Below, one piece after another: positions 6,109 to 44,218 of a stretch of 64,000 nucleotides of DNA. Position 1 is the stretch's first letter. Every line of letters begins with the position of its first letter. Under the pieces are notes generated by a model. The model had not been told where the DNA came from. It saw nothing but the letters and a program-made list of their open reading frames with translations, and did not search any database. Source of the DNA: Crotophaga sulcirostris (lineage: Eukaryota > Chordata > Aves > Cuculiformes > Crotophagidae). A program made the position numbers and the translations under genes. Where the stretch lies: positions 90,271-154,270 of the forward strand of contig VYZB01000295.1 of assembly GCA_013397455.1 (NCBI GenBank), read 5' to 3'.

Positions 6109-6201
6109 TTACTTAAACAGAACAAGCTTATGTAGCTGATAAAGATCATTTTCTCTTCCACAATTGCCCTCAGGCGGGTCAATGATATCTCGAGAATCCA
6201 C
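6109..6201 (-). CDS. TDRD9: TDRD9 last coding exon with stop codon
   Basis: The exon follows an acceptor at 6202-6203 and reads 30 codons from VDSRDIIDPP to a TAA at 6109-6111. The end, LYQLHKLVLFK, matches the conserved C-terminus of vertebrate TDRD9 (human ends LYQLHKLVVLGT). It joins in phase 0 to the exon at 7479-7551. No lesion is visible. Confidence 0.85.
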   Translation of the reverse strand: MDSRDIIDPPEGNCGRENDLYQLHKLVLFK

Positions 6202-7478
6202 CTAATCAGAAGAAGCAAGATGAAAGTCAGAATGCATTCTCAATAATGTTTTCCTATATAACATAGTTAATGAAGAGTTTGGCAAGTTTTAAATCATAAA
6301 GACATTTCAGTTCCATGCCACACATTTCAGCTTGGGAGCCAGTACCATAAAATGCTGCATCTCATGGTTTGCCTGAGTCAGAATACTATTCCACAATGGA
6401 TTCCAAAGCATTACAGGTAGTATTTTATGTGATGATGTAAGGAAGATTTCCTGAGATTCTTCAGATTTCAGATGTAGTGGGGAAAATCCTGACCCAAGGC
6501 CTATCCATTAACTTGTTGCAACAAGCTGAGCACCAACATAACTAACTAGGAGATTACCTTCATAATACCAACTGCAACTGAAATATGAAAATAGAAACAC
6601 ACGGGCTTAAGGCAGTGTATCATGACATACATTAACCCCTCAGTGACTCCCTACTAGAAATATGTGCCCTTGGTGCTCATACATTGCTGTCAATCTTTGC
6701 AAGAAGAGAGACCTAAGCCCCTCATTTATGTGCCTTGTGCTGGGAGAGGCACAGGGAGGGAGTGTGTAGAAACCTTACTGTTGCACTCAGTAATTCCTCA
6801 CCCCCTTTTAATTAAGAAAATGCATTTCTTCGTGAGGAAATCTAGTGGCCTGCAGAGGCCTTGAAAGAAAGAAATGTAAGATTTCTAAGAGAGTAGGAAG
6901 TTAAGGCTTCTCATCTTTATGAAACCCTCTTGGACATCAAGCAAGCTAACCTTCTATCTGATCTCACCACATTCATTCTAAAGCAAGTTGTACTTCTCTC
7001 TGCTCAAAAGAGAGAAGCCACCTGAGAGCACAGCAACCCGAAAGAGAACAAAAATGCACTGCATTCAGATAAATCCTAAACAAAGAAAACGTATCAGTGT
7101 TTATCTTCTAGGCCACGGCTGTTTAACAGAAAGAATAATACAAAATTTAAGTTTCAACAAGTCTAAGTTGCTTTTACAGTCTCTCTCAACTTAAAAATCA
7201 TGAAGTGCTCTGTTTGAAAAAGCTAAGTATTTCTGTACACAAAATTTAAAAAAAACCCCAAACACTCAAAGACTCTACAAAAATAGGATACTGAGAGTGA
7301 TATATATACAACATATACCTTAAATTTGACTCTGCAGTGTTTCCATTATCTTTTAAGTTCGATACTCAAAAAAGACATCCTTCCAAAGGAAGCTCCTTTT
7401 CACCACTCAAAGTGCCACAGTACAGTTAGTTAACTACTCTTTTTAAGGTAAAACAAATACATGTATTTATAACCCTAC

Positions 7479-7551
7479 CTGATTCCATGCGTATGGCTTC
7501 TCATACCCTGTAGGAATGATTTTATGTTGAGGTTTTGATTTGCAGATTGAA
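7479..7551 (-). CDS. TDRD9: TDRD9 penultimate coding exon
   Basis: The exon is 73 bases, with its acceptor at 7552-7553 and donor at 7477-7478. After one base that completes a split codon it reads 24 codons including CKSKPQHKIIP and EKPYAWNQ. These match the human CQSKPREKIVP and EKPYEWNQ segments in the same order. Phases fit both neighbours and the frame is open. Confidence 0.85.
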
Positions 7552-10391
7552 CTGAAATTACATAAAAATAGCCTTAAGAAACACACTTGTATTTGAATAA
7601 TTATAAATAAAAAGGAATTTATATATTCGATACAACTAGCATCTGCCTGTGCTGAAGAACATCTTAAATTTCCTTGTTAACCAAGGCCGATTTGTTCTTT
7701 TCTCATTACTTAGCCCTTCTAGAATAAGAAGTGAAAATACAGATTTTCACAGGGACACTAAGTGTACCAGAATATATCTTCATTTAAATGCAGGGGTTTT
7801 TTTTACAAATTTACAAAGTACTAGAATCTGTAACTGTCCTTTATTCCCTAAGTTTTATGCATGTTTATTCACTAGAACATATAACAGAGCTATTTTTAGG
7901 ATATTTTGTTTTGCGTGACAACTCAATTACTATAGATTGTCTGTCTGCTCCAGTTATTTCCTCAAGCTGTGCAAAGTATAACAGTAGTAGACTTTAATTA
8001 ATTCTGTCTAGATGTGTTTTTCAAGCACTGATTTTAGGCTTAAGTAGTGGTGACATGTTGTAAATACAATTAGCTTTTGAAAAATGGAAAAAAGTTAAGA
8101 AAGACTGTTCAGGCTAAATTTTTACATATTTGCTCTTATTAATGAAAGCTTGGGCTTTTCCCAAGACATAAATCAAAGCACAGTCAGAAAAAGAAGTATT
8201 CAAAACAAAGAAAGATTTTACATAAAGGAAAAGACGACATCACAGCAACAACCAGATTGCCTCTCCTTCAAAAAGGGAAAGAAAAAAATATTAGGAAAAT
8301 AAACTGTAGGATTGTTGGAACAGAATCAGTAAAGCACTGACATCCCAAGACAAAACACTATGACAGAAAGGTATAAAATCATAAAGGAAAAAAGTCCAGA
8401 AAACAGATGAGTATGACCGAGTCAGGCAGTCACTGAACTGGGCACTGACTGAACTGGGCAACGCGTCAATGCTGAGGAGCTGCGCCAAGGAGCTGCACAG
8501 GCTGCTCCCTCCTCTCCCAGCTGGTTGGAGATGTCTGAACAATCAATGCTGAAAAGGTGCTGAAACCGTAGCAAGTATTCCCATGTCTAACGAAATAGCA
8601 GTGACATTTTGTACTCTGAACTTGGCATGTAAGCGCTGATGTCCAAGCATGAGCTCCTTTACTGTCACAGTCACCTCCAGAGAGGTTTTGTGGTTTTGCT
8701 TGTTTCAGCCTATCCACTTCCCTTGACTTCTCCCTACACTTACTACACCATGAATCACACAAGCCACCTTCACTCAGCTTTGAAGTCTGAACGTGGTACT
8801 AACATGGCAGTGTACAAATGCAGACACCAACTGGTCTGAGTTACTTGGACAGAAATAGGAAATTAAATACTGCATCAGCAGTATGCTTGACAGTTGCTAT
8901 TTCACCAGGAGTTTTCCAGACATGGAACACCAATACCCTGTTGCCAGCCTGCGCTGGTGCTCCGTAAGTAGAAAGCACAAGCAACAAGCACCCGAGGTAT
9001 GGACCTTGTGAGGCTGTACCACCACTTTCCAGAGGCACACAGAACCCACTTCAGCAGCTGGCTGGAAGCTGCTGTGTCCCAGAGAAAAGAGCACAGTGAA
9101 GAAGCCAGAACAAAAATAATCACCTTGCTCCCTTGTCATATCTAACATGTCTACTGGTCAGCTAACATATAATGGGAATCTCCACATCTCCCGGCAACTG
9201 CTGATGCTCTTTTAATCTCATTTCCAGTGCCTTCAACAGCAAGGCTGACTCCCCACACACTTTTTAATTTATTATAAAATGCATCACACTGAATCTTCTT
9301 TCAAGTTTTGAAAATAAGTATGGACACTTGCTTTCAGCCAAAGGCATTTTAATAGTTTTTTCACAGCTGGGGGTGTAAACAACTAAGCAGATACAGTCAA
9401 AACCAAGAAACACCTGAAAACTCAGCATAAACAGCTGCTCTGATAACAATTTCTACAATCTACGGTAAGTGCAGCTAAAGCTTAAAGGCTTTTGGTCTTG
9501 ATCAGCATGAGGAGTTGCCTCACTTTGCCACATAGTTACTTTAGAAAAGCACTATTCCTGCAAAAGGTCACATTTCCTAAAGATGAGGCCAATACTGGAG
9601 CATAACATAACTGAATTCATGGTTGAGCCAGAGCTGCTCTTGAAATCTGTTCAGAGCCAGGTAACCATGAGAAAAGTCTTCCAATGGTACAGACAGCACT
9701 AAAACACACCCACTACATTTAGAAATAAAGGAAGATTTTCCACAGCATGCTCAGCAGTAGCAGACATTAGAAGGAGCTTCATTTAACTGGCTCCCCTGAA
9801 CATTTCTGACACCACAAGCTGAAAAAATTCTCAAGACTGTCCACACAGACTCAGAACAGTCTTTTCAGAACCACTGCTTCAGTCAGGAGACACAGGAAGA
9901 CCTGCTGGAAAAAACAAGGCACGTGGACTTACTTCATAAATTAACCCAGGACTTCCAGCAATTAACTTCTCCAACATCTGACGTACACAGGTCTACTAGG
10001 GGAAGAAAGGCATCACACACAATCCAAACTTAAACGTATAGGGAGGAAGAATTCTAAATCCTTCTGCACTCTTATGCCATGTGACTTCATAAGCTTTGTT
10101 ATGGGTGTGCAAAGTGAAGATACATCGGAAAATACACATCTATATAGTAGAACAGGTTTTACAGTCTAGGTTTTATGACTCTTAAGCTTCCCTGAAGAAC
10201 CAGTGCTTCCACAAGAAATCTAAAGTTGATGAGTATACTGCTTTATAAACAAACAAAGTAAATTAAATGCATCATTAAATGAGAAGACATATTATTTCCC
10301 CAAAGCCTAATCTGAGCTATGCTTCAAGCAATCACTTATTGTGTTTTTGCTGACTGTGAAACAGAACATCTTAATTCTACAAAATTATTAC

Positions 10392-10501
10392 CATAGCAAT
10401 TTCTGACGAATGTTTTCCTGCAGCTGTCTCATATTCTCCTGTCCAGAACACACTTCACATTCATGAAGCATCTTATTAATGGTTAGCCTTAGGACGTTTA
10501 T
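10392..10501 (-). CDS. TDRD9: TDRD9 C-terminal exon (third from the end)
   Basis: The exon is 110 bases, with its acceptor at 10502-10503 and donor at 10390-10391. It reads INVLRLTINK at its start and MRQLQENIRQKLL at its end, matching human VNILRAAINK and VAQLQDIARQKLL. It has 36 whole codons plus two bases, in phase with the exons on each side. It is open, with good splice sites. Confidence 0.85.
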
Positions 10502-11164
10502 CTGTAAGAATACCAGTGACACAGTATAAAGCACTATAAACATGCACTAGTTCCGTATTATATTATACTAACATGAAGCTGGTTGTGGCACCCATACCAC
10601 CGAACTTCAGTTGGAGTATTATTAACATAAGCAAAAACATTTGAAGTTTTGGAAACACTTATTCCTCTGGATGCATGTCTGCCAGTCAAAGACATTAATA
10701 TTTAAGGTTACTCAGATATGCTGTGAACCATACAGGCTACCACTTGCCTGGATTTTTTCAAAACCAGAATACCTTCTGTAGATTTTCTCAGGATTTTTCT
10801 CCATCCGTCCGTAACATTCAAATGCACAACAGCTTGGTGATACCATCGTATCTCAGGTGTCACAAATACAGGCGTCACATAAACCAAGGCAGTGCTTTCA
10901 GAAAACAACAGCACAAATAAATGCACCCGCATGTCCACTGTGCCCTTAAAAAGCGTGTAGAAACCACTAGTCACCACCTGTACCTGCTCTGTACAGAATT
11001 TATCAGGGTGCGTAAGCTCCTTTACTGCCTAAAGCACACATCAGATCTAAGTACAGGTTAGTTAGATACAGCTCGCTGTCCTATATAACACAGGATGTGT
11101 ATACACTTCTCTCTGACACATCTGTGTCTAAAATTTTTAGAAAGGCTGTAAGGAGGAATACAGA

Positions 11165-11480
11165 GGGTTTCATCATTAGCTGGGGAGGAACTTTTTACAA
11201 GGGCTTGTAGTCACAGAATGAGGGGGAATGGCTTTAAACTGGAAGGGGGAAGATTTACATTAGACATTAGGAAGAAATTCTTTATGATGAGGGTGGTGAG
11301 GTCCTGGCACAGGTTGCCCAGGGAAGCTGTGGGTGCCCCCTCACTGGAAGTGTTAAAGGCCAGGTTGGATGGGGCCTGGAGCAGCCTGGTCTGGTGGGAG
11401 GTGTCCCTGCCCATGGCAGGGGGGTGGAACTGGATTGGCTTTAAGGTCCTTTCCAACCCAAACCATTTTTTGATTCTGTT
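11165..11480 (+). repeat. CR1 LINE 3' fragment
   Basis: Typical CR1 3' end in plus orientation, with 'ttaggaagaaattcttta', 'gcacaggttgcccaggga', 'ccatggcaggggggtggaac' and 'ccaacccaaaccatttttt'. It lies inside the TDRD9 intron between the exons at 11870 and 10501, on the strand opposite to that gene. Confidence 0.9.
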
Positions 11481-11869
11481 TGCTGGGCTGATCTGCTCTG
11501 GGAGAAGTAGCTTGACAAAGATGACTTATCAGAACTGTAAAATCAAACTGTAGATTTCAAAGCAGTAATGCCAGGCTGATTCTACAAACATAACTGACAA
11601 GTACTGACAACTGATTATTCCAAAACTGATGCTTTTGTTTTGAGAAGTGTACAATGTATTGTTCTATAATATTTTATTTTGTTCAAAGTGTGTGGAGGAG
11701 GTAACTGGTTTGGGTTTTTTTCCTGGTAAGAATCCGAAGTTATAAACACTAACAAATAAACCCCCAAACCCACAGCTTAAAACAAGTTTTCTTACTACAT
11801 ATAAGAGTTAACAAGCTCTGATGCACTGAATTCTACTTTATTCACACAAAATTCTAATGCATGTTTTAC

Positions 11870-12008
11870 CTCTCTTATGTCTTCCAGTCCAAAATGCACG
11901 TCAAACGCCAGTTCCATGTCATTTTCTGGAAGAAGTGGAGCCCCACGAGTCTGACTCCAACCCAAACCACACAGAGCACCAGTAAAACACTTGTGACTTC
12001 TACCAACT
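11870..12008 (-). CDS. TDRD9: TDRD9 C-terminal exon after the Tudor region
   Basis: The exon is 139 bases, with an acceptor at 12009-12010 (two bases downstream is an alternative) and donor at 11868-11869. It reads FTGALCGLGW, then LLPENDMELAFDV and LEDIRE. These correspond to the human YTGVLCGLGW, ILPEHDMELAFDV and VEDVVE block near residue 1250. One split base is followed by 46 codons, ending in phase 0, and the frame is open. Upstream, the next recognised exon (13904-13957) belongs several hundred residues earlier in the protein. Confidence 0.88.
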
Positions 12009-13903
12009 CTATAGGAAGAAGAAAGAAAATGGTCTCACCTAGAGATGAAGAAACTAAACTCATACAAAGACAAGACTTAAATGAATTAGTCAACTATGTC
12101 AAGCAAGATACAGGTGTGTTTTAAAGAAGCTGAAACAATTGAGAGGCACTCACACATAGTCATACTGGTTTTTTTCAAGTATAGCGATGAAACAAAACTA
12201 AAGTTCTGGTTATGAAAACATATACTCATAAAACTTAAAGGAAATCATTCATATGCAAAATGAAACTTTAATTAAGGAAAGTTGGCTTCACTATGCTGAA
12301 ATGACAGTCTACAGATACAAGAATTTTGAAGCAAATGTAGATAAGTACAGTCTACTCAACTGCTTCTTAACTACATTTTCACTTCTGCTGCTGACAGTTT
12401 TAGGATACTAAAATTCTTGTTATTTTCCCCATAGAACAACTACCATAATCAGAAAACAATCTGTGTGGCTACCTCAGTTCTGCAAATCCAATTCTAGACA
12501 AGGAATTACAAAATTAACGTCCGAAAGAGTGGCAAATAAAAAACCCCAAATCTTCTTACTAAGCATTAGTGTAGGTGTCTATTCTAAACTCCTGAACTAC
12601 TGTGTCATGTAGAACATCTTGAATTATCTGAACTCAGGCCAAAAGAACACCAACTATCCAGGAGGCTATCATGTAACACTGATCCTCCAGCTCCCCAGTT
12701 TTACACAAGTTGCTTTTTTCCTTATCTTTTTTTCCTTGATATCAGACATATAAACTAAAAAACTATTGGTATTTCTTATCCAGGTGGCTGCTTAGTATGA
12801 AAAAACTTTTTTTTGCCCTGTGCTTTTCAAATACAGGCCCTACATGGCTCATGCCAAAGTTATGACCTGGAATAACGGGTAGGCTGTGCTCTGCCCATCA
12901 CAGTTATTCAGGAGTTATACTTATTTCCCCTCTCAATGTACCACATTAAGCTTGAAACCCTTTGCTGACGCAGAGTTTTCATTATCTGCTGCAGTTATGC
13001 AAGCAACAAAGCCCCTTAAATTTTCAAGTCCAGTCCTCATTATAGAACAGTATTTGCTTAAAATTATCCTTACTATAAGACAAAAGTTATACAGCAACAG
13101 ACAGCAGTAACACCATAACCGGTGTATAAGGGACCTACAGAATTAGCAAATAATACTGCACGTCTCCTAAAAATGTTAAAAATATGTTAAAACTGTTAAT
13201 AATGTAACACCACTTTGTGTTGGAAAATTATTAATATTTAAAATTTGACAGGTCTGGCTAAGAATTTTATCCAAAAAAAAGGAAAATTCCTTTCATCTAA
13301 AAGCTAGCAGTCAGTGAACTAAGATAATACAGGATATGCCACTTCTACAGGCTTCACCAAGAGCCATCTCTCAATAGTGCCACCTGTGGTAGTTAACAAG
13401 CTACTGAGAGTCCATCCCTTCCAGGCATGGGTATTTGGCTTATTATCATATATAAATATATAAAATATTATCTGAAGTCCATTCTTCACAAGAATGTACA
13501 CTGGGCTTTGCTAACATTACAATCATTTTCCTCACCTCTTTCCTTTCTTTGAAATTGTATATAAACAGATAGGTTCTCTGCAACCACTTGACAGAAAGCA
13601 AGGAACAGAGGAAAAAATGCTGCCCAAATGTTTGCTCACTATGACCATAGTTAATAAAGCTTCTGCATGATCGGTCTTAAATCCCAATATTCTACAGCAA
13701 CTTTAAGTAGTATCAGTTCTCTCCTGTAAAGAAACAAAACCTAAATTTACAGTTACCTAATTTACAGTTTGATTAAGAAAAAACACATCTATATAATATT
13801 GATAGATATATAATAATATAGTAGGCTTATCCAAGATCTTATCTTTCCCTATTTTCTACAAGTTAAGTCTTGCTTATAAAAATTATTACCTATTTCATCT
13901 TAC
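12009..13903 (-). other. TDRD9 interval where the Tudor-domain exons should lie; none recognised
   Basis: The flanking exons are TDRD9 segments that in the vertebrate protein are separated by a few hundred residues, including the Tudor domain. This 1.9 kb is AT-rich and has no open frame resembling Tudor sequence (no F-x-D-Y-G-N block) on either strand. The missing exons are therefore deleted, moved elsewhere or decayed beyond recognition. Confidence 0.55.
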
Positions 13904-13957
13904 CTCTCTGATACTCTTGATATGAATATAATTTTTTTGACCCCACACAAGCTCATC
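13904..13957 (-). CDS. TDRD9: TDRD9 exon, end of helicase-associated region
   Basis: The exon is 54 bases, with its acceptor at 13958-13959 after a pyrimidine run and donor GTAAG at 13902-13903. Its 18 codons read DELVWGQKNYIHIKSIRE, against human DELNWGRLNYIQIKRIRE. It follows directly in the protein from the exon at 14909-14953. It is open and in phase 0 at both ends. Confidence 0.88.
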
Positions 13958-14908: not shown

Positions 14909-14953
14909 CTTGGGGTGTATCAGCTCCCCTCTTTGTCTGTACGCCTGCCATGC
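14909..14953 (-). CDS. TDRD9: TDRD9 exon, helicase-associated region
   Basis: The exon is 45 bases, with its acceptor at 14954-14955 (preceded by cttctttcttag on the minus strand) and donor at 14907-14908. Its 15 codons read AWQAYRQRGELIHPK, matching human TWKACRQTGELRYPK. It is open, phase 0 at both ends, and contiguous in the protein with the next exon. Confidence 0.85.
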
Positions 14954-15437
14954 CTAAGAAAGAAGCAGTGTAGTATTCAGGTAAAAACTGTTGTGCTTTA
15001 GTAATAACAATTACAAGTATTAATGTGACAGTTAAAACCATTAAGTTTTTTCCACTGAAGTTAATTTTTTTTAACACCAATTTAAAGACCAGAAATACCT
15101 ATGGGCTAACACAGACTACAAATATTTAAGCACAAAAGAGCGTAAGGAAATGTAAATGACAGTCATTTAAGTTGGACGAGACTTCATCAGATCAATTGTT
15201 CCAACATTACACACAGCAAGGCTAACTTAGATCAGGTTTTTGAGGATCTTGGCTATAAAACCTTACATAATCTTGACCGATGTCATGGTTGGACCCACTC
15301 TGAGTAGGAAACTAGACTACAGACCTCCTTATGACTTTTCCAGTCTTAAGTATTTAATGATTCTAGTTTAATATGATGCTTGCCTGGCTGGTTCCTAAGC
15401 AGATATAAATATATCTCACTCTTATGAATAGTCTTAC

Positions 15438-15508
15438 TTTATTTTCTTGAGGGTGGTCTTCTTTTGCTTATACGTGAGCACACAAAGTGGCATGGCTGCA
15501 AAACAATT
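15438..15508 (-). pseudogene. Tentative decayed TDRD9 exon (NFFAMPF segment)
   Basis: The segment lies between an acceptor (15509-15510) and a GTAAGA donor (15436-15437). It reads NCFAAMP, similar to human NFFAMP, and the preceding codon is a stop in place of lysine. It sits in the right order between neighbouring TDRD9 exons. The rest of the exon does not align and the exit phase is wrong for the next exon, so it is either decayed or a chance match. Confidence 0.3.
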
Positions 15509-16189
15509 CTAAGAATGCATCACTGGATGGTTTAAATGATTTCATTATTAAGTAGAAAAATCTATGACAGATGCTTGAAGAATCCATTTCTTCTAGTTTG
15601 ACAAGTCACCTCATATTACAATTTTCCAGCTTACCGTGGACACTGACTGTTAGCATAGTTGAATAGTCAGACTGAATTTCTCTACCTTAATTGAACAATA
15701 TTGACATACTGATTTTAAATAATGCTTTTGACACTCACCACTTCCATACCAAAGCCTTGCAATATGTCAGAAAAATAAAGTCCACTTATGATTTCAGAAA
15801 GCTTTTAAAAGAAAAAATGTCACATATCACATAAACCAGGCTCAACAGCCTTCACTTCCCTGGATTCTCCTATTTCTACTACCAAAGTTTTGGATCTTTT
15901 CTAATTCACCAAAAACTTTTCATAAGCAATGACTTAAAAAAGATGTGCTAATGATTCTATGAACTTGAAGCCTATCCTGGAAGAAATCTAATCTGAACCA
16001 CGGTGTTTGAAGCAAGTACTTTCTCTGTCCTTTTCTGACACTCAGCTTCCACATCACTGACATATAGAGATACTATATAGAAAGCTGTTTGAATGTCTGT
16101 GTTTCTTCTACAGGACAACATGCTGGTCTATAGAAATATCACCTGCAGATTAACAGGACATGAAAGAAATACAGTATACAGGGAAGTGA

Positions 16190-16300
16190 GACTGAGTGCC
16201 ATGGTTCAGGTGATCGGATGGTGTTAGTGTTGGCTTATAGGTTGGACTTGATGACCTCAGAGGTCCCTTCCAACCTTGTGATACTGTGATACTGTGAATT
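16190..16300 (+). repeat. CR1 LINE 3' end fragment
   Basis: Contains 'ggttggacttgatgacctcagaggtcccttccaacct' (quoted in part) and ends with tandem 'gatactgt' octamers typical of CR1 tails. It is a short truncated copy in plus orientation. Confidence 0.8.
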
Positions 16301-17412
16301 AAGAAAAGGTGATGCTTGAGCCTCAGAATCAGTGGGTATGCACGGCCTATGTGCCCATGTGTGTTTTGTAAGTCCGACAACAGAATAGAGAAAAACAAGT
16401 CAGCTTTCACCGAAGTGAAAAGAGGCCAACACACATAAAATGGAACAAATTACATCTGCAGCTGAAGATTTTCAAGTCTCCAGAAGATTACAGAACATGT
16501 CAGACCATCCATAATGTAAAACACCGCATTTTGAACAGTAGGTTCCTCTAGCTGAAATCTTTCCCATGCTAAACCGGTTCTGCTTGTAATCACTGGGATC
16601 GACCTCTGTCCATGGTACTGAGCCACCAAACAACCAAGTGTAAAGAAAAACCACACTTGGACAGAAAAAAATAATACGAATTCAAAGATATGAAGCCTGG
16701 AGAAAGGACACCAAACCCATTCAGTACTAGAATTTACCAGTCCAAATAATACAGACAAGAAGAGGCAACCTACTATTACCTGTAGTGTAACTTCTTAGCA
16801 AGCAGAACGAAGCAAGTACACACCAAAACAGTACAGTGTGATTTGCATCAATCAGTATTTGCAACAACAAAATGTCGCTATGTAAATTTGTTCTTCTTGA
16901 GCTGAAATGGGGCACTCACCAGACAGTAGTCATATGGACAAAGATGAGACATTTTTGGCAGAATAAATAAGGAACATTCTGCAAAACCTAGAACACACTC
17001 TTACTGGAATTTTCTCCTGATTACTGCTAATTACACAAATTACAGGAGACAAGCTTACCTGTATAAATACATTAATAAATGCTTAGAGGTTTATTTCTAA
17101 AAAATTAATCATATTTTAATATCATTTAAAAACCTCCAAGGTTGATGAAAAATATTTTGCACAAAACCCCTGGTATTTTCCTAAAAAGATGTTTTATTTT
17201 GAAAGAACAAGCAGAACTGCACTTTTTTTGTAACATGTATTATTTAAACTTCCTGAAGAAATGGAATTCAAAATTTTGTCCACAACTATGCTTTCTGAAA
17301 GACACAGGATATCAAAATTGGAATGAGATCATGAGATTTAGCTTTGTCTTCAAAAGAAGGCCAGAACAGAAACAGTCTTATTTACCAGTGAAATTAATCA
17401 AAATTAGGTTAC

Positions 17413-17514
17413 CAAAGATCTTAGAAAGTAGTAGTACACTGCTGCAGAACTCCTTGCAAACTTATTCACCAGTTTCTCAAGTATACGTAATACTCCTGTA
17501 TTCTAAAAACACCA
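17413..17514 (-). pseudogene. Tentative TDRD9 helicase exon with frameshift
   Basis: An acceptor lies at 17515-17516 and a GTAACC donor at 17411-17412. The minus strand reads VVFL, then ITYT in the same frame, then after a one-step frame change LEKLVNKFARSS and VY. Human TDRD9 has VFLPGLGEINYMHELL and VYPLH at nearly the same distance (73 bases here against 75 expected). The frame is interrupted. Position in the gene order is correct, but the similarity is weak. Confidence 0.35.
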
Positions 17515-18134
17515 CTAGTTTTAACAAAAAGTCTAGCATGTAAGAAAACTAACCATTATCAAGAACTACAGGTCATGACATTAATTGAAGATGTATACAT
17601 GGGAACAAAAACATTTCCTAAATACGTGGCCAGTGTTAGGCCAAAGTTGTAGAAACAACTGTGCGACATTTTCAAATAGTAAACATCAATTTAAAAAACA
17701 TAGACAGTAACAAAAATTAATATTTACTTATTTCAACAGACAGTAAGGAATTAGTTAAACACCCACTGAAAATTAATGCCTGGTTTGAATTTTTTCTTCA
17801 TGGCTTAATGTTATGTTTTAGTTTACAATGCAAAACAGTTGCCTGGTTTTATTCTTCATATAAACAATGTTCAGCTCTGGTCTGCAGCACAGAACCTGCT
17901 TTCCATAAGACACTTGAATAGTCACTTACACTCCAGGGCATTCAATAAGACCTACAAGCAGTCTTAGTATGAGTAACCTGAGTAGAAATCACACAAATAT
18001 ATAAAGTAAAAGCAGGGATGCACAGAAAATTAAGTTACCACTAATAACTGTAATGCATGGGCTGATGCTGTCCCTCAAGTAATGTCTTATTTCCCCGAAG
18101 AATCACTGTTCCCAGATTTTGAAATTTATCCTAC

Positions 18135-18219
18135 CTATTGCTCTTCATCTCCAACTCGTCAAATGACTGAATCAAAGACACTGCTGCTTCATACGTTTCC
18201 ATTCATATCTCTGGTTCTT
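18135..18219 (-). pseudogene. TDRD9: TDRD9 helicase exon with in-frame TGA
   Basis: The exon is 85 bases, with its acceptor at 18220-18221 and donor GTAGG at 18133-18134. It reads EPEI, stop, then METYEAAVSLIQSFDELEM. Human has EEPVITKDIYEVAVSLIQMFDDLDM. The TGA at 18203-18205 is in the frame fixed by the strong downstream match. No acceptor AG lies between it and the matching part, so splicing cannot easily avoid it. The lesion falls between the two helicase lobes. Confidence 0.8.
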
Positions 18220-18225
18220 CTATAT

Positions 18226-21200
18226 TTTGAGAAGGAAGCTGTGTGGAGAAGAAAGGACTGAGCTTAACACAATATAACAGACTAGAAGACTGTAGATCAA
18301 GAATATGTGCTTTTTGGTTAGAACGGATGCAGCATAGAAGCTGTACAAGTAACTAACTTAATCTCGATCATTCACTGCTTTCTGAATAGGCATTTTCCTT
18401 TTAGCATTCTACCACCATTCCAGTATTGTACTCAAGAAATACTTGTGATATTTACCTACTTAAGATATGCACTAGCCCACACTCCATCCCATAACATTTG
18501 GAGGACATGCTCCATAACTAGAAGTGTTAAGCATACGAGACTAAGCACAACCCATGGGAACAGGATCAAAAGCAGGAGGGGAATTTGTACAAGGCACGCA
18601 CAGACCTTCTCACAGGTCTATAATGCAGCTTTAAAAGAAAATGCTTAATGAACCAGAAATACTCTGGGAAAGGTCTACAGTATTACACATTTTTTCTTTT
18701 TGCTTTCAATCATTGCTCACCTTTCATTCTCAGGGTTTCTCCTCACTCTAGCAGAGTGGCGTTATCTCTAACTTTTCTAGAACTGTATTACAGTGTCATT
18801 TACCCTCCACACACTTCCCACTATCAGAAATCCTACAGTCAAACAGCACTTCTCCCCCTTACGTTATGCCTTAGAAGTTCTTTCCTCTTCCCTCCCTCTA
18901 TCCTCAAGTGAAATATTTCATTTTCTTTTATGCTGAAACCTATCAGTTTAAGCCATTCAAGACTTTCTCAAGAAAAACAGTAGGTTCAAGTGATCAGCCT
19001 CTACATTCTTTCTCTGCAGGTTGTGTGTGTATGCTTTAAGCAATCACGTATTTTCTCACTAATTAACAAACATCAATTTTTACGTATATGCTCAGCCCAG
19101 TATTTTTCCTAGCATATCAGTTGCCTTCACCTGCTGTTTGATATACTACAGTAGTAGTTCAGCATTTCAGTACATCCTTATTTAGGCTTGGACTTCTCAT
19201 TTTTACTTTTAAGGTACTGTAATTAAAGTGATAGTGAAAACAGCATTTTTGCTTTAAGCCTAACACTCCATAAGAGCCGGACTGTACAGTAGCAACAAAA
19301 ATGCAGTAGCCAGCAGGAATCAGTAAATACGTGCAGATAAATACTAACAAAAGCTAAGATGCAGCTGTAGCCAGGGAGATTTAACAAGGATATAAAATGT
19401 AAGGAAAAAGCTTCTGGAATCAAACTCAAAACGAAAGCTGAATTGCCAAGAATAATACTTCAAGGTTGCTACGCACAAAACTAAGATATTCCAAGTCTTC
19501 CCCTAAAAGAAGCAGAAGTTATTTACCAGTTATTCACATTTCACAGGGCTTTGATTTTAATCAAGCACAAAACTAAGATAACACTTATTCCAAGTCAGTT
19601 ATCATATAAGGAAAAGATGATTCTGCAAAAGTTTTCAATGAACAAAAACAGCAACAGAAAGACATACGATGAAGTTTGTATGTGTACTCATAAGACTATA
19701 ATTCATCTGTGTCCTTCAACTGTCTGAAGTGAGATAAAATTTAGTAAGACTGATCCCCTGGAAACAGCCAGGAAGACTTCTCAGGTTTACAACTTTGCCA
19801 ATCCTGGAGCTTCTTAACTGCACTTTACACCCACGACAGTAAAGCTTTTCCAATGAAGGTTGATTAGTCCATGAGAAACCACAGACAACGTTCCAGTAGT
19901 TTTGGTAAGTAGTACTTTTTTCCAACACATGTGATAAGCTAAGGAATTTATCTTCTCTGGGTTGTCTGAACATAAGAATTATATTTTTAGATTATCCCTG
20001 CTTAAGCAAGTGTCAAATTTGTCTTTTCAATTTTGTTATCAATTGTACCTTTAGTATTCTTTAACATGACAAGGCTGCCACATCACTCCTAATAAAAGGT
20101 AACAATGTGACAAACACAGCAGGTCCAAAGGCCCAGTCAGAGCTGACTGAAATAATAAAACCATAATTGGAATAGCTTTTGACAGCAGTTCGCTACCTTT
20201 CCTCTGGACTCTTGACTTCAGTTCTAGGAATATGAAAGAGGTTTTACATTTGCAAGCCAAAAATGGGACACACTTTTTTGCCTTAGGTAGAGACATGGGA
20301 TTTCACAGATCTACTGCCAAAGACTAACATCCATGCCTACATTTCTAAAATCTGGTCGCAGAATTAAGGCCATTATGCCAAAAGAAAAAGAAATCTACTT
20401 TTTATAAACCTATACTCGAAAACTCATCAATAGAATCCATAAATGACCCAATATCCAAGCCAAGGTAAGCCAGAGCTACACTGAAGAGTGTTTCTCTCTT
20501 CCCTCCCTCATTTTTATTCTTTCCTACAAATGAAGTGATTCAAGTGGAAAGCTTTATCTTTGATTCAGCTAGATGTCTATCTAGTCACACAGCAAAGGTT
20601 TTGCTGCAAACAGGCATACAAAAGAAAAAATTTCTACTGATTTTCCAAATCACAACCGACATCGATGAATTCCCAAGTTATCCAAGTCAAAACTGCTCAA
20701 AGAAAATTTTTCTTTTCAAGCATAGCATTAAAAATTATCACCTACAGAAATGAGTGATATATTCAAGCCCAGAACTCCACAGGATTCATAAAAGAATTCT
20801 ACATTTATACAGTAACATTCAACTACTTTAGATTTTTTTGAGAAGGGACCAAGGTTCGTACCTCACAGCAAACAAGACAGTTACAAAGGACTAAACTGAT
20901 TTCAATCAAGATGTTTTAAGGAATTAGTTCTGATTTAAGTCATCCAATTTTACAGTAATTAATTTTAAAATCTAAAGACAACTTAGAAAAAATACGTTTA
21001 TCTAAAAAGTAAATACTTTTTTAGCTTCTGTATTCTTTTTGTGTGAATTTTACAGGCTTTTATTGGCAAAAATAAAACCTTAAAAACTAAAGCCTGAAGC
21101 CTGTACCTCACGTAGCTAACTGATTTGATTTTAGTGTGATGAAAGATGTGGTCCTGCTTCCATATGGCGGCATTATCTCATTAAGTGCCTTAACACTCAC

Positions 21201-22360: not shown

Positions 22361-22369
22361 GCATGCCAT

Positions 22370-23380
22370 GAGTTCTAACTGGCTGGCTGGTCACATCCAG
22401 GGAGTAGTGGTCCGTGGCTCAAAGTCAAAATCAAGACTGGTGACGAGTGGTGTCTCTCAGGGGTCCATACTGGGACCAGTGTTATTTAATATTTTCATCA
22501 ACAACATAGTGAGATCGAGTGCACCATCAGCAAGTTTGCAGATGACACCAAGCTGGGTGGTGCAGCTGACACACCAGAAGGACAAACTGTCATCCAGGAG
22601 GACATGGACAAGCGGGCCCACATGACCCTCATGAGGTTTAACAAGGCGAAGTGCAGAGTCCTGTGCCTGGCTAGCAGCAACCCTCTTTCTCTGGGAGATC
22701 AGAGAGCTGCCCTGTGGAAGAGGGCTTGGCAAGCTGGACACGAGCCAACAATGTGTACTCGCAGCCCAGAAGGCCAACTGTATCCTGGACTGCATCAAAA
22801 GAACCATGGCCAGCAGGTTGACTGAGTTGATTCTGCCACTCTACCTGGCTCTTGTGAGACCCCACCTGGAGCACTGTGTCCAGTTCTGGGGCACTCAGCA
22901 CAAGGATGATCATGAAGTTGTTGGAACAGGTCCAGAGGAGGGTTATGAAAATGATACAAGGGCTGGAGCATCTCTGCTATGAAGACAGGGTGAGGGAGAT
23001 GGGGTTGTTCAGCCTACAGAAGAGAAGGCTCCGCGAAGACCTTAGAGCAGCCTCCAGTACTTTAAAGGGGCTACAGGAAAGCTGGGGACAGACTTTTTAG
23101 CAAGGGCTGCTGTTACAGGACAAGGGGTAATGGCTTTAAACAAGAGAGGGGAGATTTTGACTGGATATAGGAAGAAATTTCTTACAGTGAGAGTGGTGAA
23201 ACACTGGCACAGGTTGCCCAGGGAGGTGACAGATGCCCCACTCCCTGCAAACATTCAAGGTCAGGCTGGATGGGGCTCTACGCAACCTGATTTAGTTGAA
23301 GATTTCCCTGATCACTGCAGGGGGGTTGGACCAGAAGACCTGTAAAGGTCCCTTCCAACCCAAAGCATTCTACGAATATT
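22370..23380 (+). repeat. CR1 LINE, 1-kb copy with reverse-transcriptase remnant
   Basis: A 5'-truncated CR1 in plus orientation. Near 22440-22500 the frame reads [20 protein letters not shown], the conserved reverse-transcriptase block preceding the catalytic motif. The downstream ORF2 end and the usual 3' untranslated part follow, finishing with 'cccttccaacccaaagcatt'. Several frameshifts and stops mean it is not active. It is inserted in the TDRD9 intron between the exons at 23712 and 18219. Confidence 0.92.
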
Positions 23381-23711
23381 CACTGAGTTTGTCAGCTGTA
23401 TTCAAAGAGCTCTATGAGCCCTCATATGTTACTTCCTGCACAGACTTCTACATTGTTCATCTTGGATGCAAACTACCAAAGAAAATGCCACATGCTGCTT
23501 CAGATTCCCCATACTTTTCATTCCATTTCTGTTACATGAAAGAAGAACTAGGCCACTGGTAAGGAGACTCCTGTTTTATCACCACATATTAATGTTTATC
23601 CAGAACTGCAATGTAAAATTGGTTATTTGTAATTTTATTACACAGTTTCCAATTAACCGTATCAATTTCTTTCTTATTATTCCCAAAGAAATAACGTTAC
23701 ATTTACAATAC

Positions 23712-23876
23712 CTGAAAATGAACTGTGTACTTCAAATCATCAAGATAATATTCTTTGACTTCATAAGGTCTGCCTTCCACCTTAAATACACAGGCTGGTC
23801 TCAAACCATTACGAACTGGAAGTGCAAAGTAATCAGCAAATTCTTTACAGTTGATAGAAGCAGACATCAATATCAC
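23712..23876 (-). CDS. TDRD9: TDRD9 helicase exon with motif III
   Basis: The exon is 165 bases (55 codons), with its acceptor at 23877-23878 and donor at 23710-23711. It reads VILMSASINCKEFADYFALP and later VKEYYLDDL. Human has VVLMSATISCKEFADYFAVP and VEEYYLNDL. Motif III is S-A-S instead of the usual S-A-T; this couples ATP hydrolysis to unwinding in the family. It is open, phase 0 at both ends, and follows the 25291-25371 exon. Confidence 0.88.
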
Positions 23877-25290: not shown

Positions 25291-25371
25291 CTTTACAGAT
25301 TGTGAATTTGTACACAACAGTTTACGGACCACCAAGAGCAAGAAATCCATTTCTTTTGTACGCTCATGCAC
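25291..25371 (-). CDS. TDRD9: TDRD9 helicase exon after motif II
   Basis: The exon is 81 bases (27 codons), with its acceptor at 25372-25373 and donor GTAGG at 25289-25290. It reads VHERTKEMDFLLLVVRKLL, matching human VHERTEEMDFLLLVVRKLL almost exactly. The first two residues complete the DExH box begun in the preceding exon. It is open and in phase. Confidence 0.92.
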
Positions 25372-26196: not shown

Positions 26197-26300
26197 TAGA
26201 ATCACAGAATGGTTTGTGCTGGAGGGGACCTTTACAGATCTAGTCCAACCCGCTTGTAATGAGCAGGGACATCTTCAAGAAATGGTTACCACTGGGCCAA
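26197..26300 (-). repeat. CR1 LINE 3' end fragment
   Basis: Reverse-orientation CR1 tail: 'agaatcacagaatggtttg' then 'ggaggggacctttacagatc' and 'tagtccaacccgct'. It is a short, truncated copy in TDRD9 intronic sequence. Confidence 0.85.
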
Positions 26301-27511
26301 GATCTCAATTTGTGAGGTAAATGTGGGGGGAAAGTGGCATATGCAGAATATGAGGGACAGGAATTTCAGCTGGGGAAGCAAAAAACCACATACAGTCTTG
26401 AAAGCTAGGACCTGCTGAAACAAGAGCTACAAGCTGATATCATCAGTTCAAACAGAGTATCCCAAACAAGGCTTTTCAAACCTCTGCATTTCCTTATTTT
26501 AGGATTAAAAAGATCAAGGTTTTGCAAAACCCTGCTTGATTAGAAGACTAGAGTGGTCTCAAATCTTTCCCATGAAGAAAACTGGTACAATTCTTTAGGA
26601 TTTGGGGTGGGGGTTGTTATTTTTGTCTGTTTGAATGAAGTCTTGAAGTTTCTTCATACAAAAGTGTAAATATTTGCTTCATCTTTTTCATTTTATCAAT
26701 GTGCCATCTCAAGTGTAGTCACAACAGCCTTCATTGTAACGGCAATAGTGTAATGGTATATCAAGTACTGACTCCCTGCTCCTCAAACATCCAAGAATCA
26801 GTCATTCTCAGCTAAAACACTGTAATGGAACAGAAATAAAACGAGCATTAAAAAAAAAAAGTCCTCTTCTGTGCCATTATATCCCAAGATTTAAAATATC
26901 GCCTTAAAATGTGATCTATATTCATGGTTTGGGAAAGCACAATTTCACATCTGACTAGGTTTAACAGTCAAATACTGCTTACCTCAGAAAACAAGCAAAA
27001 AAAATCACATAAAAATATACAAATTACAGAAAAGTCTTTAAAGTATATTTTCTTTAGCTTTTCAGTGAAGTGACAGTAATAATGATGAATCCCCATGAGC
27101 AGACTGTAAATCTAGCCAGAAAACAGAATTTTCAGAGGGCTGTTTCATTTTTCAGGACAACCATGAAGAGCAAAGGGGAGTAACAGCCAAGGGAGCAAAA
27201 ACTAGCCACCTCCTCCTCACAGATCTAGCCACAAATGTTCATGGAATCCAGGCAGTGGATTTCAGAATACATTTTACGGCTTTCATATCAAAAGCTAAGC
27301 ACTCCCAGACATCCTCCCCACAGCCTCAGTTCTAAAACTTCGTTGCTCAAAGGAACACAGAGACAAGTCTATTTAAAGAAGTGTTAGCTGAGACAACTTA
27401 TACAAGGCATCTTTACAACTGGATGTCTGCATTTTTCCCTCTCCAGCATGCTAAGAGACACAAAAGAAGGTAAATTTAAATTTCATATTAAAGACATTTC
27501 CACTAACTTAC

Positions 27512-27628
27512 ATCATCAATGACAATGTGTGTGAATTCCTTTAGGCTTTTGGCACAAACTACTTTTTCAAGAAGAACTCCAGTTGTCACCAATCTTGTCC
27601 TGTTTGAGGAAATGTTCTCCAAACTTAC
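27512..27628 (-). CDS. TDRD9: TDRD9 helicase exon with start of motif II
   Basis: The exon is 117 bases (39 codons), with its acceptor at 27629-27630 and donor at 27510-27511. It reads VSLENI, then RLVTTGVLLEKVV and KSLKEFTHIVIDD. Human has VGLEKI, RLIYMTTGVLLQKIV and KSLMEFTHVFIDE. Together with the next exon motif II is D-D-V-H, where the family has D-E-V-H. The exon is open. The exon that should precede it in the transcript is found inverted at 29 kb. Confidence 0.9.
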
Positions 27629-28929
27629 CTAACACAATGAGAAAAATAAAGACATGAGCAGATAGTGAATGGATTTACAGGAATTACGCAGCTGAAAGAA
27701 TTCCAAAATGAAATACAGATTAAGTCCATGAGAATTATTCATTCAAACTTCCAGAAGACTCTGTACAAATGAGTTCTCAAAGCTTGGAATCCACTAACTC
27801 AAGGAACAAATATTTTCTTTAGGAGAAAACAAAAAAACCTCAAAACTTTATTTTATAAAGGATCAAAAATTCCTGCAAAGTGCTATAGCCTGAGAATAAT
27901 CCTTCAAAGTTTTTTAAAAGGTAAGCACATGAAGATAGCATCAAGATCAGGCAACTTACTCTAGAAAGGAAAGTTCTACAATCCTATGTTAAACAATGGA
28001 TCTACCATTTCTAAAATAATTACATAACCTGAGCCATTTCAGGTGCTGCCTACCCAGGCAGGCAGGCAGAGCAATGATCATCTTTTCATTTTCCATTTTA
28101 GAACAGCTTAGAACAGACAAATCTACACTCAACTGTTTTTTTACTTCCTTTTTGCTCAACTCAAACAAGTACTTGTGAAACAAGCACTGCACATCCAAAT
28201 ACACTGTCCTGAAAAGAGTCTGGAAACACACCATCACCATTTTCAAGACTCATTAGTCTAATGAATCAATTTCGCAATTTTATGACTGTTCAATTCAAGG
28301 TATAAAGTTATATAAAACACTTTGTTTAGAAACTACTTTGGAAAAAGTAACATATATAACCCATAGTAATTCTACAAAGCAATAACCTGAGGTTATTAAT
28401 ATTGTCTTAGTTAAGACCTGAGAATGTCAGATAATAACTCCCACATAGTTACTCTAGAATGTTCACCTCTCTGAACTGAAACTTCTTTAGTAAGTGATGG
28501 ACCATAAACAGTATTTTTAGTTCATCTTCCAATTTACCTGTGAAAAAATTCAGAGTAGTATAAAAAAAGAAGGCAAAAAATAACTTTACCTACTATAGCA
28601 TTTGCTGTAAATATATCAAAAGAAACCACTAAGATTTGATACTTAAAGAACAGTATTCAGTAGGGATGATAAAGATCCTTTTGATGCGAAAATGAAGCTG
28701 ACGTATCTGTATAGCCCTGTAATATGGTATTGCTGGTACTCGTAACAGGCCATAAGCTTTGCACTGAGTCTGTGAGGCCTCAGGATTAAGGCATGTCTCA
28801 TTTCTTGATCTGCCTCTACCTTTGCTTTACTTGATCTAGTTGTGACAGCAATTTAGTGTAGAGATATCAGGTTTGGTACACTAGCAGAGGCCTTAAGAAA
28901 TGTAGACATGGGTTAACAAATGAAGAAGA

Positions 28930-29147
28930 GGCTGGGCACTGTAGACCCCAAGCTATAAACAACTCTGTAATGGTCAGTTGAAAACAAAAACCCCTCAGAC
29001 CTGGAACTGGACAAAATTGATTTTATGGGTAACAAAGAGTACTGCAACATTGCTGTTACCCAGCCTCAGAGAATCGGGGCCAGCAGCCTTGCCAGGTGGA
29101 TCTGCAGGGAAAGATCATGGACGTCAGGTGGATTTGTGGGATGCCAG
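28930..29147 (+). pseudogene. TDRD9: Inverted and damaged TDRD9 exon (Walker A and motif Ia)
   Basis: On the plus strand, opposite to all other TDRD9 exons, 29040-29147 reads YCNIAVTQPQRIGASSLARW and ends GGFVGCQ before a GTACGA donor. Human has YCSIVVTQPRKIGASSIARW and GGVVGYQ, directly before the VGLEK exon. Upstream, INNSVMV (28955-28975) matches human ESNSVVI. It is followed by a TGA at 28979-28981. About 64 bases lie between that block and YCN where 81 are expected, a loss not divisible by three. No GxGK[ST] survives, only a GGAACTGGA remnant near 29003. The P-loop is therefore destroyed in this copy. Motif Ia also has Q for R (TQPQR). No intact copy was found on the minus strand between 27.6 and 31.7 kb. 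Confidence 0.75.
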
Positions 29148-30543
29148 GTACGAGAAAATTTCAAGTTGTATGTAAAAACACATTAAAAAGTACTGTATCT
29201 TCTTTATTATTTACTTTTAAGCATATCTAGCATACTGAAGCAGTGTTAGAGAATCTGCTTTTAAAGTGGAATTGCAGATTTCTAGCTGTCCTCTGTTAAA
29301 CATTCATAATGAAATGCTTAAGCTTTTAAAATCGAACAACTATAAATGCTACTTCAATATTTAATCATCTGCATTTACAAAAAGTAACCAGGACAGGAGT
29401 TTGGTTAGCAATAATATGGCACATTACAACTAAACAATTTTGCTAAAAAGCCCTGCTATCCTGAAATCAGAAACAGAAATCCTCTCTATTTCAAAAGGGT
29501 TTCACTAGGTCCACAGTGACATTTACTTATTTGCATACAGACAATAAAAGCTTAGACTTCACTAAGAAATACATAGAGTAGTGCACAAGAAATCTAGTAT
29601 TCTACTTACAAAGGCAATATTTACTGTAAAATAAGGGTTATAGCCTAAACACCTGGTCGCACAGTTACAGCTGTCTGTCTTTGGAAGGGTTACTACCTTA
29701 CACAGTAATGAGACAGAAGCAGGCACAACTTCTTTTGTGTCTGTAACACACCTGAATGTGCTCCAACCCCCTCACCTTAAAACAAACCCCCCAAAGGCTG
29801 CACAGTTCACTAAAACAGTTTCATGAAGCACTAAAAACCAGAGTTCTCAGGAAGACACACTCCAAGAAAGTTTCTTTACCTAGATTCTATGTAAAGCAGC
29901 AGTTACAGGTGATCATTGCACAGTGATTTACTTAGCACTACAAATCAGAACTTAGTATCAGCAACCTTGGGAAATATTAACTATCCTCTTTAAAGTACTT
30001 TTAGTCAAGTTTCTAAATATATTCCCCGGGAAAAGTAATCTACAGCATTCTGTCACAGCAACACTGTACAACGGCTGACTGTCTTCCCTCTGGCACAAAC
30101 ATGTCACAACCGAGACATCAGTAGCTCTGCATGATTTGACCAATGCTAGAAGAAATTTCAAGCTGCTAGGGGAAAGATCCCAGTGTCAGCATATCCCTGC
30201 TAAAGCAACACAGCCTTCCCACCTCCATCTCATTTTCCCTGTAACAACTGCAATTGTGAAAAATGTGTTAAAAGTTCATCTTTGCTCATGAAACTTCTGT
30301 TCTCCGGTGTAATTCTTTTCAACTTGCATGTATTTTGAATACAAAAGGCTATTTGCTAACTAGATGTTGTCTAACTAAGTTACAACTGGAAGGCACAAAT
30401 AAATACTAAAAGATATAACTTTCAAGGACAAACTGTAGGGCAGACCAAGAGCTAAAAAAAGGTATTTATAAAACGAAGAACCAAGACAACTGTGAAGAAC
30501 TATTTCCCTACAAGCTTAAGTTATAACCTTGTTTCTTTTACAG

Positions 30544-30607
30544 GAGGAACATTGCTAGCATCGGTTCAATTCAAAATCAAGCAGGCCATCGGTGCTGCTA
30601 AATTCAG
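30544..30607 (+). other. Unassigned exon-like segment
   Basis: A good pyrimidine tract and acceptor (tgtttcttttacag) precedes an open segment reading GGTLLASVQF and ending before CAG|GTGCGAG. I do not recognise the protein, no flanking exon is visible, and it may be chance. Confidence 0.15.
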
Positions 30608-31597
30608 GTGCGAGCCTACCTTAGGCAGAATTCTGATTCAATATGTGAAGGACATTAAATGATTTACGGTATTGCGTTGAATTAATCAATACTACTACAC
30701 TTTTATAGAGACATCTAAGGAACTAACACTTAGTTAACTCATTGCTGTCCTTCCTTTGCCAGTCAAAGCACATGAAACACTAGGGAACACCACATTCCTG
30801 AACTACAATGTCGGAAGCTTCTTCCAGTCCCTTTATTGCCCCATCTTCAGTTTTCAACACCTCCTCCTCTTCCACAAGTTTTGTCACGTCAGGCAAACAA
30901 GAGACAGTATTTTGCAGTTAGGACAGGTGGTCAGATGCACAGCACTGGACAGGTCAGCTGCACCTACTGCCTCTCAGCTGATGGCAGGCCAGACAAACGG
31001 CTTCACCAGCTACCTGGGCTCCAGAGGCCATGGAATTTGTAGAAGCACTGAAGGACAGTCATTTCTAGACAATGTATCAATTTGACAAAGTTTGGTATCT
31101 TAGCAAAGGGATACAAAAGTACTACAGAGAATGACACACAGAACAGACAAAACACAAAAATACCCTCTTCTTGGGAAATCAGCTATATTAACAAATCTAG
31201 AAATTAAGAGGCACAGTAAAAGTTTGAAGCTGAGCTGTCCTGACAAGCGAGTCAGGCTCATACTGCGTTTACCAGAACTCCTAGGAAAGAAGTGCAAGCA
31301 GATTTCTCTCTAAAGGCAGTTCAAAGCAACAATCAAGTATACCCAGAAATAACGTGGAATAGAAAATGAGAAAACAGAAAAGACAGACATGAATCCAATG
31401 AGTGATACATTTTCCTTGCAGATATATTTCAACTACTTATCTACATTTGTCAATACAATAAATCAGATGAATGCATATATATCTATGCAACAGCATTATA
31501 CATTGTTGTTTCCATAAAACAGGGCATTTACTTTTTAATATCATGCACACACATCTTTAAACAAGAAATATACAGTAAGGTTTCATAACTTTGTTTA

Positions 31598-31655
31598 GGG
31601 GAGGAGATGGGAATAAAGACCGCAGGGAGGAGATGGGAATAAAGACTGCAGGGAG
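31598..31655. repeat. Tandem repeat, 26-base unit, two copies
   Basis: The unit 'ggaggagatgggaataaaga' plus 'c(c/t)gcag' occurs twice in direct succession with one substitution. It lies in TDRD9 intron sequence just downstream (minus sense) of the 31714-31820 exon. Confidence 0.7.
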
Positions 31656-31713
31656 GAAAAGTACAGATATATCCAAGTTTAGAAAAGGAACCAAATAAAT
31701 ATATTTTTTTTAC

Positions 31714-31820
31714 CTGGTTTACAGAAAAGTTGATGATTTTGAACTGCACCTAGTTCCTGTGCCTCTGCTTGGCCGTATTTTTCAGCACATTCAGTTGTAG
31801 TGATCTCTGTGATAGGCAGC
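31714..31820 (-). CDS. TDRD9: TDRD9 N-terminal exon
   Basis: The exon is 107 bases, with its acceptor at 31821-31822 (preceded by ctttccttttcag on the minus strand) and donor GTAAAA at 31712-31713. It reads ECAEKYGQAEAQEL, matching human EYINKYRQLEAQEL in the region before the helicase domain. One split base, 35 codons and one base are consistent with an internal exon. The first coding exon, with the initiator methionine, was not found upstream to 48.5 kb. Confidence 0.75.

Positions 31821-42527: not shown

Positions 42528-44218
<1,691 letters not shown>

What the first reader, a model, noticed from the sequence alone, without database searches (positions are those of the whole stretch)
6109..31820. 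TDRD9, a core piRNA-pathway helicase, looks broken in this bird
Several independent defects fall in one gene: an inverted Walker A exon with a lost P-loop, an in-frame TGA, changes in motifs II and III, and no recognisable Tudor-domain exons. Established knowledge: TDRD9 loss in mice derepresses LINE-1 and makes males sterile. A bird lineage living without it would imply compensation in transposon control. The last four exons are still open and in phase, which points to recent loss or to a retained C-terminal product.
Basis: partly seen in the sequence, partly recalled or inferred. Interest (0 to 1): 0.82.

Follow-up and report, generated by a model that had tools for sequence, protein, structure and literature searches.

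The report
Broken TDRD9 gene, probably a cuckoo
A gene that mice need to silence jumping genes in sperm-forming cells is wrecked at its normal place in this bird's genome, and no second copy was found; the bird is probably a cuckoo, and two other cuckoos carry unusually worn versions of the gene.

Summary
TDRD9 at its normal chromosomal place reads as a unitary pseudogene in this assembly. Remnants of 12 exons cover about 398 of 1350 residues (29%). The Helicase_C, HA2 and Tudor domains fall wholly inside two lost segments. No P-loop pattern exists in any frame. One exon is inverted, one carries an in-frame TGA (18205), and the catalytic DEVH reads DDVH. The eleven minus-strand exons keep AG/GT splice sites and the last four still join in frame. 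Flanking genes (PPP1R13B, ATP5MJ, RD3L, ASPG) are in order, so this is the orthologous locus. Two TDRD9 probes against the 1.058 Gb assembly match at TDRD9-level identity only here, while other Tudor and PIWI genes are found. New here: the remnant groups with the two cuckoo TDRD9 proteins (support 100/98, long branches). Those two full-architecture genes and this remnant are the three most deviant of 121 rows at conserved sites. TDRD9 therefore looks relaxed in cuckoos and dead in this one. Transcripts, copies outside the assembly, and effects on transposons are untested.

The parts
31714..31820 (-). N-terminal exon remnant ('LPITE..AEKYGQAEAQE'), AG acceptor and GT donor kept
29040..29147 (+). 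Motif Ia exon (TQPQRIGA instead of TQPRKIGA), on the opposite strand to all other recognised exons; 5' edge uncertain; donor GT kept
27512..27628 (-). Exon b, ends ...HIVIDD (DEVH to DDVH with exon c); 2-residue in-frame deletion at LLYMTTG
25291..25371 (-). Exon c, VHERTKEMDF..., open, splice sites kept
23712..23876 (-). Exon d, motif III LMSAS (normal for birds), open, splice sites kept
18135..18238 (-). Exon e, in-frame TGA at 18205; ends in phase 2, clashing with exon f (phase 0)
14954..18134 (-). Interval where residues about 356-645 (Helicase_C and HA2) should lie; no match beyond what shuffles of the interval give
14909..14953 (-). Exon f, AWQAYRQRGELIHPK, open
13904..13957 (-). Exon g, DELVWGQKNYIHIKSIRE, open; clashes in frame with exon h
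12009..13903 (-). Interval where residues about 680-1213 (including the Tudor domain) should lie; only one weak match, on the + strand at 13575-13649 (5 of 120 probes)
11870..12008 (-). Exon h, first of four C-terminal exons that join in frame
10392..10501 (-). Exon i, open, in phase
7479..7551 (-). Exon j, open, in phase
6109..6201 (-). Exon k, last exon with stop codon at 6111
42729..44215 (+). RD3L, two coding exons, open, beyond the N-terminal end of the TDRD9 remnants and on the opposite strand (synteny marker)
50656..50784 (+). ATP5MJ-like mitochondrial proteolipid exon (synteny marker)

Best explanation
This is the orthologous TDRD9 locus, turned into a unitary pseudogene. Shown: the P-loop, Helicase_C, HA2 and Tudor segments are not recognisable at the locus, one exon is inverted, one has a stop codon, the catalytic glutamate is changed, and no other copy was found in the assembly. 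Inferred: the bird is a cuckoo (Cuculidae); selection on TDRD9 was already relaxed in cuckoos, and rearrangements then removed the gene in this lineage. Inferred further: birds lack the nuclear partner MIWI2 with which mouse TDRD9 works (recalled; this assembly shows two PIWI-like genes), so TDRD9 may be easier to lose in birds once other silencing layers suffice. The order of the lesions and their date are not known.
For: Order PPP1R13B - ATP5MJ - RD3L - TDRD9 - ASPG on one 1.15 Mb contig. Exon matches to condor TDRD9 at 59-84% identity are all on that contig; all other listed hits with the condor and malkoha probes are at most 55% and 50%. Lost segments hold Helicase_C, HA2_C and Tudor. TGA, DDVH and frame clashes. 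Controls in the same assembly: 25 Tudor-domain matches including two single frames of 2000 and 2259 aa, whose best matches to TDRD9 are 20-42% identical, i.e. paralogues (best 15 of 138 rows seen); Piwi-domain matches in four AGO-like and two PIWI-like clusters. Cuckoo placement: 0.986 in FastTree, 100/98 in IQ-TREE; three residues shared only by this remnant and the two cuckoos. Relaxation: P0224 41/429, window 9/113, P0218 30/417 changed at conserved sites, ranks 1-3 of 121, median 3/421.
Against: No RNA or raw reads were available, so transcription and assembly error were not tested. The genome searches scored 37 of 58 and 34 of 64 first-look candidates. The cuckoos are not the most similar rows: the highest identity is to the petrel Hydrobates (79% over 318 columns), and the nearest rows by path are Gymnogyps, Cariama and Ciconia, because the cuckoo branches are long; its bootstrap had not settled (0.966, 0.99 wanted). 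Long branches can attract each other. The two cuckoo genes keep the full domain order and still avoid conserved sites (48 changes against 69.0 expected; 34 against 57.5), so they are relaxed at most, not dead. Observed/expected ratios of 0.60-0.67 also occur in at least three non-cuckoos (P0198, P0179, P0187), perhaps partly from poor gene models. A weak + strand match in the second gap could be a scrap of the region before the Tudor domain.
Confidence: 0.85

Rival explanations
1. Assembly artefact: the locus was collapsed or mis-joined, and the real gene is whole.
For: One exon is inverted and two exon blocks are missing, which mis-joins can produce; no reads were seen. One 31-base N stretch lies at 43684-43714 between the RD3L exons.
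Against: No N lies inside the TDRD9 remnants. The missing exons were not found in 1.058 Gb at TDRD9-level identity, whereas a mis-join should leave them elsewhere. Small lesions (TGA, 6-base deletion, DDVH) do not depend on any join. Flanking genes are in order.
Confidence: 0.07
2. A working TDRD9 exists outside this assembly (unassembled microchromosome, W, or germline-limited DNA) and the locus here is a replaced original.
For: An assembly of 1548 contigs may be incomplete. A germline-only copy would not show in a somatic assembly.
Against: No trace of a second copy with two probes. The orthologous locus is the broken one. Germline-restricted chromosomes are known from songbirds, not cuckoos (recalled).
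Confidence: 0.06
3. The last four exons make a separate short C-terminal product that is kept by selection.
For: Exons h-k are open, in phase and keep splice sites over about 5.9 kb.
Against: The Pfam domains of intact TDRD9 end at residue 988 of 1350, before these exons. Four short exons can stay open by chance for some time after loss. No start or promoter was looked for.
Confidence: 0.06
4. Ordinary fast-evolving but functional TDRD9 whose missing exons are merely too diverged to find.
For: Cuckoo TDRD9 evolves fast. One weak + strand match at 13575-13649 (5 of 120 probes, 24.6 bits) is a little above 20 shuffles (up to 24.3).
Against: 120 bird and reptile probes, two cuckoos included, find nothing convincing in gap intervals of 3.2 and 1.9 kb; in the first gap shuffles do as well or better in 4 of 20. 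The frame and stop lesions remain.
Confidence: 0.02

Closest known systems
Intact avian TDRD9 (e.g. chicken P0161, condor P0124)
   Same: Same gene; exon matches 59-84% identical to condor
   Different: About 70% of the protein is missing here, with an inverted exon, a stop codon and an altered catalytic motif
Cuckoo TDRD9 of Phaenicophaeus curvirostris (P0224) and Centropus bengalensis (P0218)
   Same: Group with this remnant in the tree; comparably deviant at conserved sites
   Different: Annotated with helicase, HA2 and Tudor domains present; read here as relaxed, not as lost
Mouse Tdrd9 E257Q catalytic-dead and knockout alleles (PMC5481186)
   Same: The glutamate of DEVH is changed here too (to D); in mice DQVH alone abolishes ATPase activity and male fertility
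   Different: Here the change sits among much larger losses, in what is presumably a breeding bird
Unitary pseudogenes generally
   Same: Single-copy gene disabled at its own locus with no intact copy found
   Different: The gene is a piRNA-pathway factor annotated in birds of many orders

Membership tests
TDRD9 orthologue (locus) | Position between ATP5MJ/PPP1R13B and ASPG, with RD3L next to it on the opposite strand | tested here: met
   (human gene order recalled)
TDRD9 orthologue (locus) | Closer to TDRD9 than to other DExH helicases | tested here: met
Functional TDRD9 | Walker A P-loop | tested here: not met
   none in six frames of the window
Functional TDRD9 | DEVH catalytic motif | tested here: not met
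   DDVH; DQVH is dead in mouse, DDVH not assayed there
Functional TDRD9 | Helicase_C, HA2 and Tudor domains | tested here: not met
Functional TDRD9 | One open spliced reading frame | tested here: not met
   TGA at 18205; e+f and g+h out of frame; one exon inverted
Unitary pseudogene | No intact copy elsewhere in the genome | tested here: met
   within the assembly held and the candidates scored
Unitary pseudogene | No functional transcript | not testable with these tools
   no RNA data
Cuckoo (Cuculidae) origin | Groups with cuckoos in a protein tree | tested here: met
   placement within cuckoos unresolved (p-AU 0.135 and 0.257)
Cuckoo (Cuculidae) origin | Independent genes agree | not tested

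The most novel reading that the evidence does not exclude
Cuckoos as a family have stopped depending on TDRD9: constraint was relaxed in their common ancestor, helicase motifs drift in species that still keep the gene, and at least one lineage has lost it outright, making cuckoos a natural TDRD9 knockout among birds that keep both PIWI genes.
Probability: 0.5. Interest if true: 0.75.

Novelty: new member of a known kind. Interest (0 to 1): 0.62.

Why it matters
In mice TDRD9 ATPase activity is essential for LINE1 silencing and male fertility, though dispensable for making piRNAs (PMC5481186). A bird that breeds without the gene, beside relatives in which it is worn, would allow a direct test of which step of transposon silencing is really indispensable in birds. 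The test is cheap: small RNA and transcript sequencing of cuckoo testis.

Tried and rejected
Rejected: motif III change as a defect. Rejected: a decayed P-loop exon near 38.8-39.0 kb on the minus strand (two probes at E 0.011 and 0.039; the reversed control of that interval gave three chance hits). Left open: a weak + strand match to the region before the Tudor domain at 13575-13649 (5 of 120 probes, 24.6 bits; reversed control none, 20 shuffles up to 24.3 bits). Rejected as TDRD9 coding: 36846-36965, matched only by an odd N-terminus of one gene model, P0193. Led nowhere: repeats that might explain the inversion (only short inverted arms, 71-85% complementary); tandem repeats; Rfam (none); IQ-TREE on 95 rows timed out. 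The Maelstrom family search (PF13017) did not complete. The species was not identified. No paper on TDRD9 loss in birds was seen in the listings, nor on cuckoo piRNA or transposon silencing in those; sought a roadrunner assembly and found none. These cover only open-licence PMC papers.

Dropped rows: searches used 94 of the 120 listed bird and reptile proteins, chosen by hand (isoforms, near duplicates and some short models left out); one search used 46 of those 94; one search used 30 of 120 mammal rows with all 120 others; one search used 110 birds, the 10 reptile rows left out. Only the best 120 of 631 hits were listed and of 5430.
Full report
What was checked. The window lies on contig C753 (1,152,702 bases) of a 1.058 Gb assembly with 1548 contigs. 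A search scored on the window's own stretch a-e listed bird and reptile TDRD9 proteins, the best 120 of 631. All 120 were used as probes.

Anatomy. Twelve exon remnants remain. Ten on the minus strand have coordinates by splice site: b 27628-27512, c 25371-25291, d 23876-23712, e 18238-18135, f 14953-14909, g 13957-13904, h 12008-11870, i 10501-10392, j 7551-7479, k 6201-6109. An N-terminal exon lies at 31820-31714. The motif Ia exon lies inverted at 29040-29147. Together they cover about 398 residues of a 1350-residue bird protein (condor numbering for the first exon, chicken for the rest). The eleven minus-strand exons have AG acceptors, and GT donors except the last exon, which needs none. 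Exon e has TGA at 18205, and e+f and g+h do not join in frame; exons h to k do join in frame and end at a stop.

What is missing. Condor residues 1-56, 92-160, 356-645 and 680-1213 were sought with up to 120 probes. In the intervals for 356-645 and 680-1213 the best real matches have 24.3 and 24.6 bits; dinucleotide-block shuffles reach or pass the first in 4 of 20 and the second in 0 of 20, where they reach 24.3. The second match lies on the + strand at 13575-13649, 37-41% identical in the rows seen, and is not listed when the whole window is searched; I treat it as unproven. In the condor protein Helicase_C lies at 358-476, HA2_C at 581-637 and Tudor at 877-988, all within the lost segments. 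No P-loop pattern exists in six frames. Whether the P-loop was in the inverted exon is not settled, since the 5' edge of that exon is unclear.

Motifs. DEVH reads DDVH, motif Ia reads TQPQR instead of TQPRK, and two residues are gone from LLYMTTG. In mice DEVH to DQVH (E257Q) abolishes ATPase activity and male fertility (PMC5481186, abstract and section 15 read); a change to D was not assayed in that section. Motif III LMSAS is found in 103 of 108 other birds, so it is no defect.

Orthologous locus. RD3L (Pfam RD3) and an ATP5MJ-like proteolipid exon lie to the right in the window. PPP1R13B's N-terminal exon lies further right and ASPG exons lie to the left on the same contig. This is the gene order of human chromosome 14 as I recall it.

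Second copy. Probes P0224 (malkoha) and P0124 (condor) gave 26 and 33 matches in the assembly; 37 of 58 and 34 of 64 first-look candidates were scored. Matches at TDRD9-level identity (56-74% and 59-84%) all lie on C753; the rest are at most 50% and 55% and read as other DExH helicases. The same assembly holds 25 Tudor-domain matches, among them single frames of 2000 and 2259 aa. Their best matches to TDRD9 are 20-42% identical (best 15 of 138 rows seen), as expected of paralogues. The 26 Piwi-domain matches fall into four AGO-like and two PIWI-like clusters (the names rest on recalled sequence). The loss therefore looks specific, not a hole in the assembly.

Which bird. On 363 columns the remnant groups with the two cuckoos Centropus bengalensis and Phaenicophaeus curvirostris: 0.986 in FastTree with 95 rows, 100/98 in IQ-TREE with 47 rows, whose bootstrap had not fully settled. 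Three residues (R12, V73, I204 of the extracted columns) are shared by these three and seen in none of the other 92 rows. Of the window's rare states Phaenicophaeus shares 8 of 52 and Centropus 6 of 40; the next best row shares 3 of 44. Against this, by plain identity the cuckoos are not nearest: Hydrobates is, at 79%, and non-cuckoos head the hit list (Hydrobates 81%, Centropus 73%, Phaenicophaeus 70%). That fits long cuckoo branches but leaves long-branch attraction as a caution. Position within cuckoos is open.

Relaxed constraint in cuckoos. At sites conserved in at least 97% of rows, Phaenicophaeus differs at 41 of 429, the remnant at 9 of 113 and Centropus at 30 of 417, the three highest of 121; the median is 3 of 421. 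Motif VI has R to H in Centropus, and motif Ib and V residues differ in Phaenicophaeus. Against this: both cuckoo proteins keep all four Pfam domains, and their rare changes still avoid conserved sites (48 against 69.0 expected, 34 against 57.5). On the remnant's columns 5 of its 29 unique changes hit conserved sites against 8.1 expected, not distinguishable from neutral (P 0.12). At least three non-cuckoo rows also have observed/expected ratios of 0.60-0.67; the median bird has 0.23.

Reading. Most likely TDRD9 lost importance in cuckoos and was then broken in this lineage by deletions and an inversion. That the bird breeds without it is inferred from its existence. That it controls transposons by other means is inferred and untested. 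In chicken TDRD9 is counted among the silencing genes whose median abundance in testis was 164 fpkm (PMC5383398, passage seen; its own value not seen) and among genes expressed unequally between left and right gonads (PMC5486120, passages seen), so the gene is not idle in birds in general.

Noticed in passing
window 36846-36965 (-): A stretch between the N-terminal TDRD9 exon and RD3L is 80% identical over 40 residues to the odd N-terminus of one flycatcher gene model (P0193); it may be a conserved non-TDRD9 element or a repeat.
   Followed up: partly
window 13575-13649 (+): Weak match (5 of 120 probes, best 41%) to the part of TDRD9 before the Tudor domain, on the wrong strand, inside the second lost interval.
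   Followed up: partly
window 11152-11553, 22457-22982, 47807-48394, 63267-63578: Open frames that look like CR1-type LINE 3' ends (recognised by eye, not by a call), some inside introns of the broken gene.
   Followed up: no
window 43684-43714: A 31-base run of N between the RD3L exons, the only one in the window.
   Followed up: no
G000 contigs C1173 (207-211 kb) and C455 (1.378-1.384 Mb): Two very long single-frame multi-Tudor genes (2259 and 2000 aa open) in the same genome.
   Followed up: partly
P0218, P0224: Annotated cuckoo TDRD9 proteins deviate at helicase residues nearly invariant in other birds, e.g. motif VI R to H in Centropus.
   Followed up: yes
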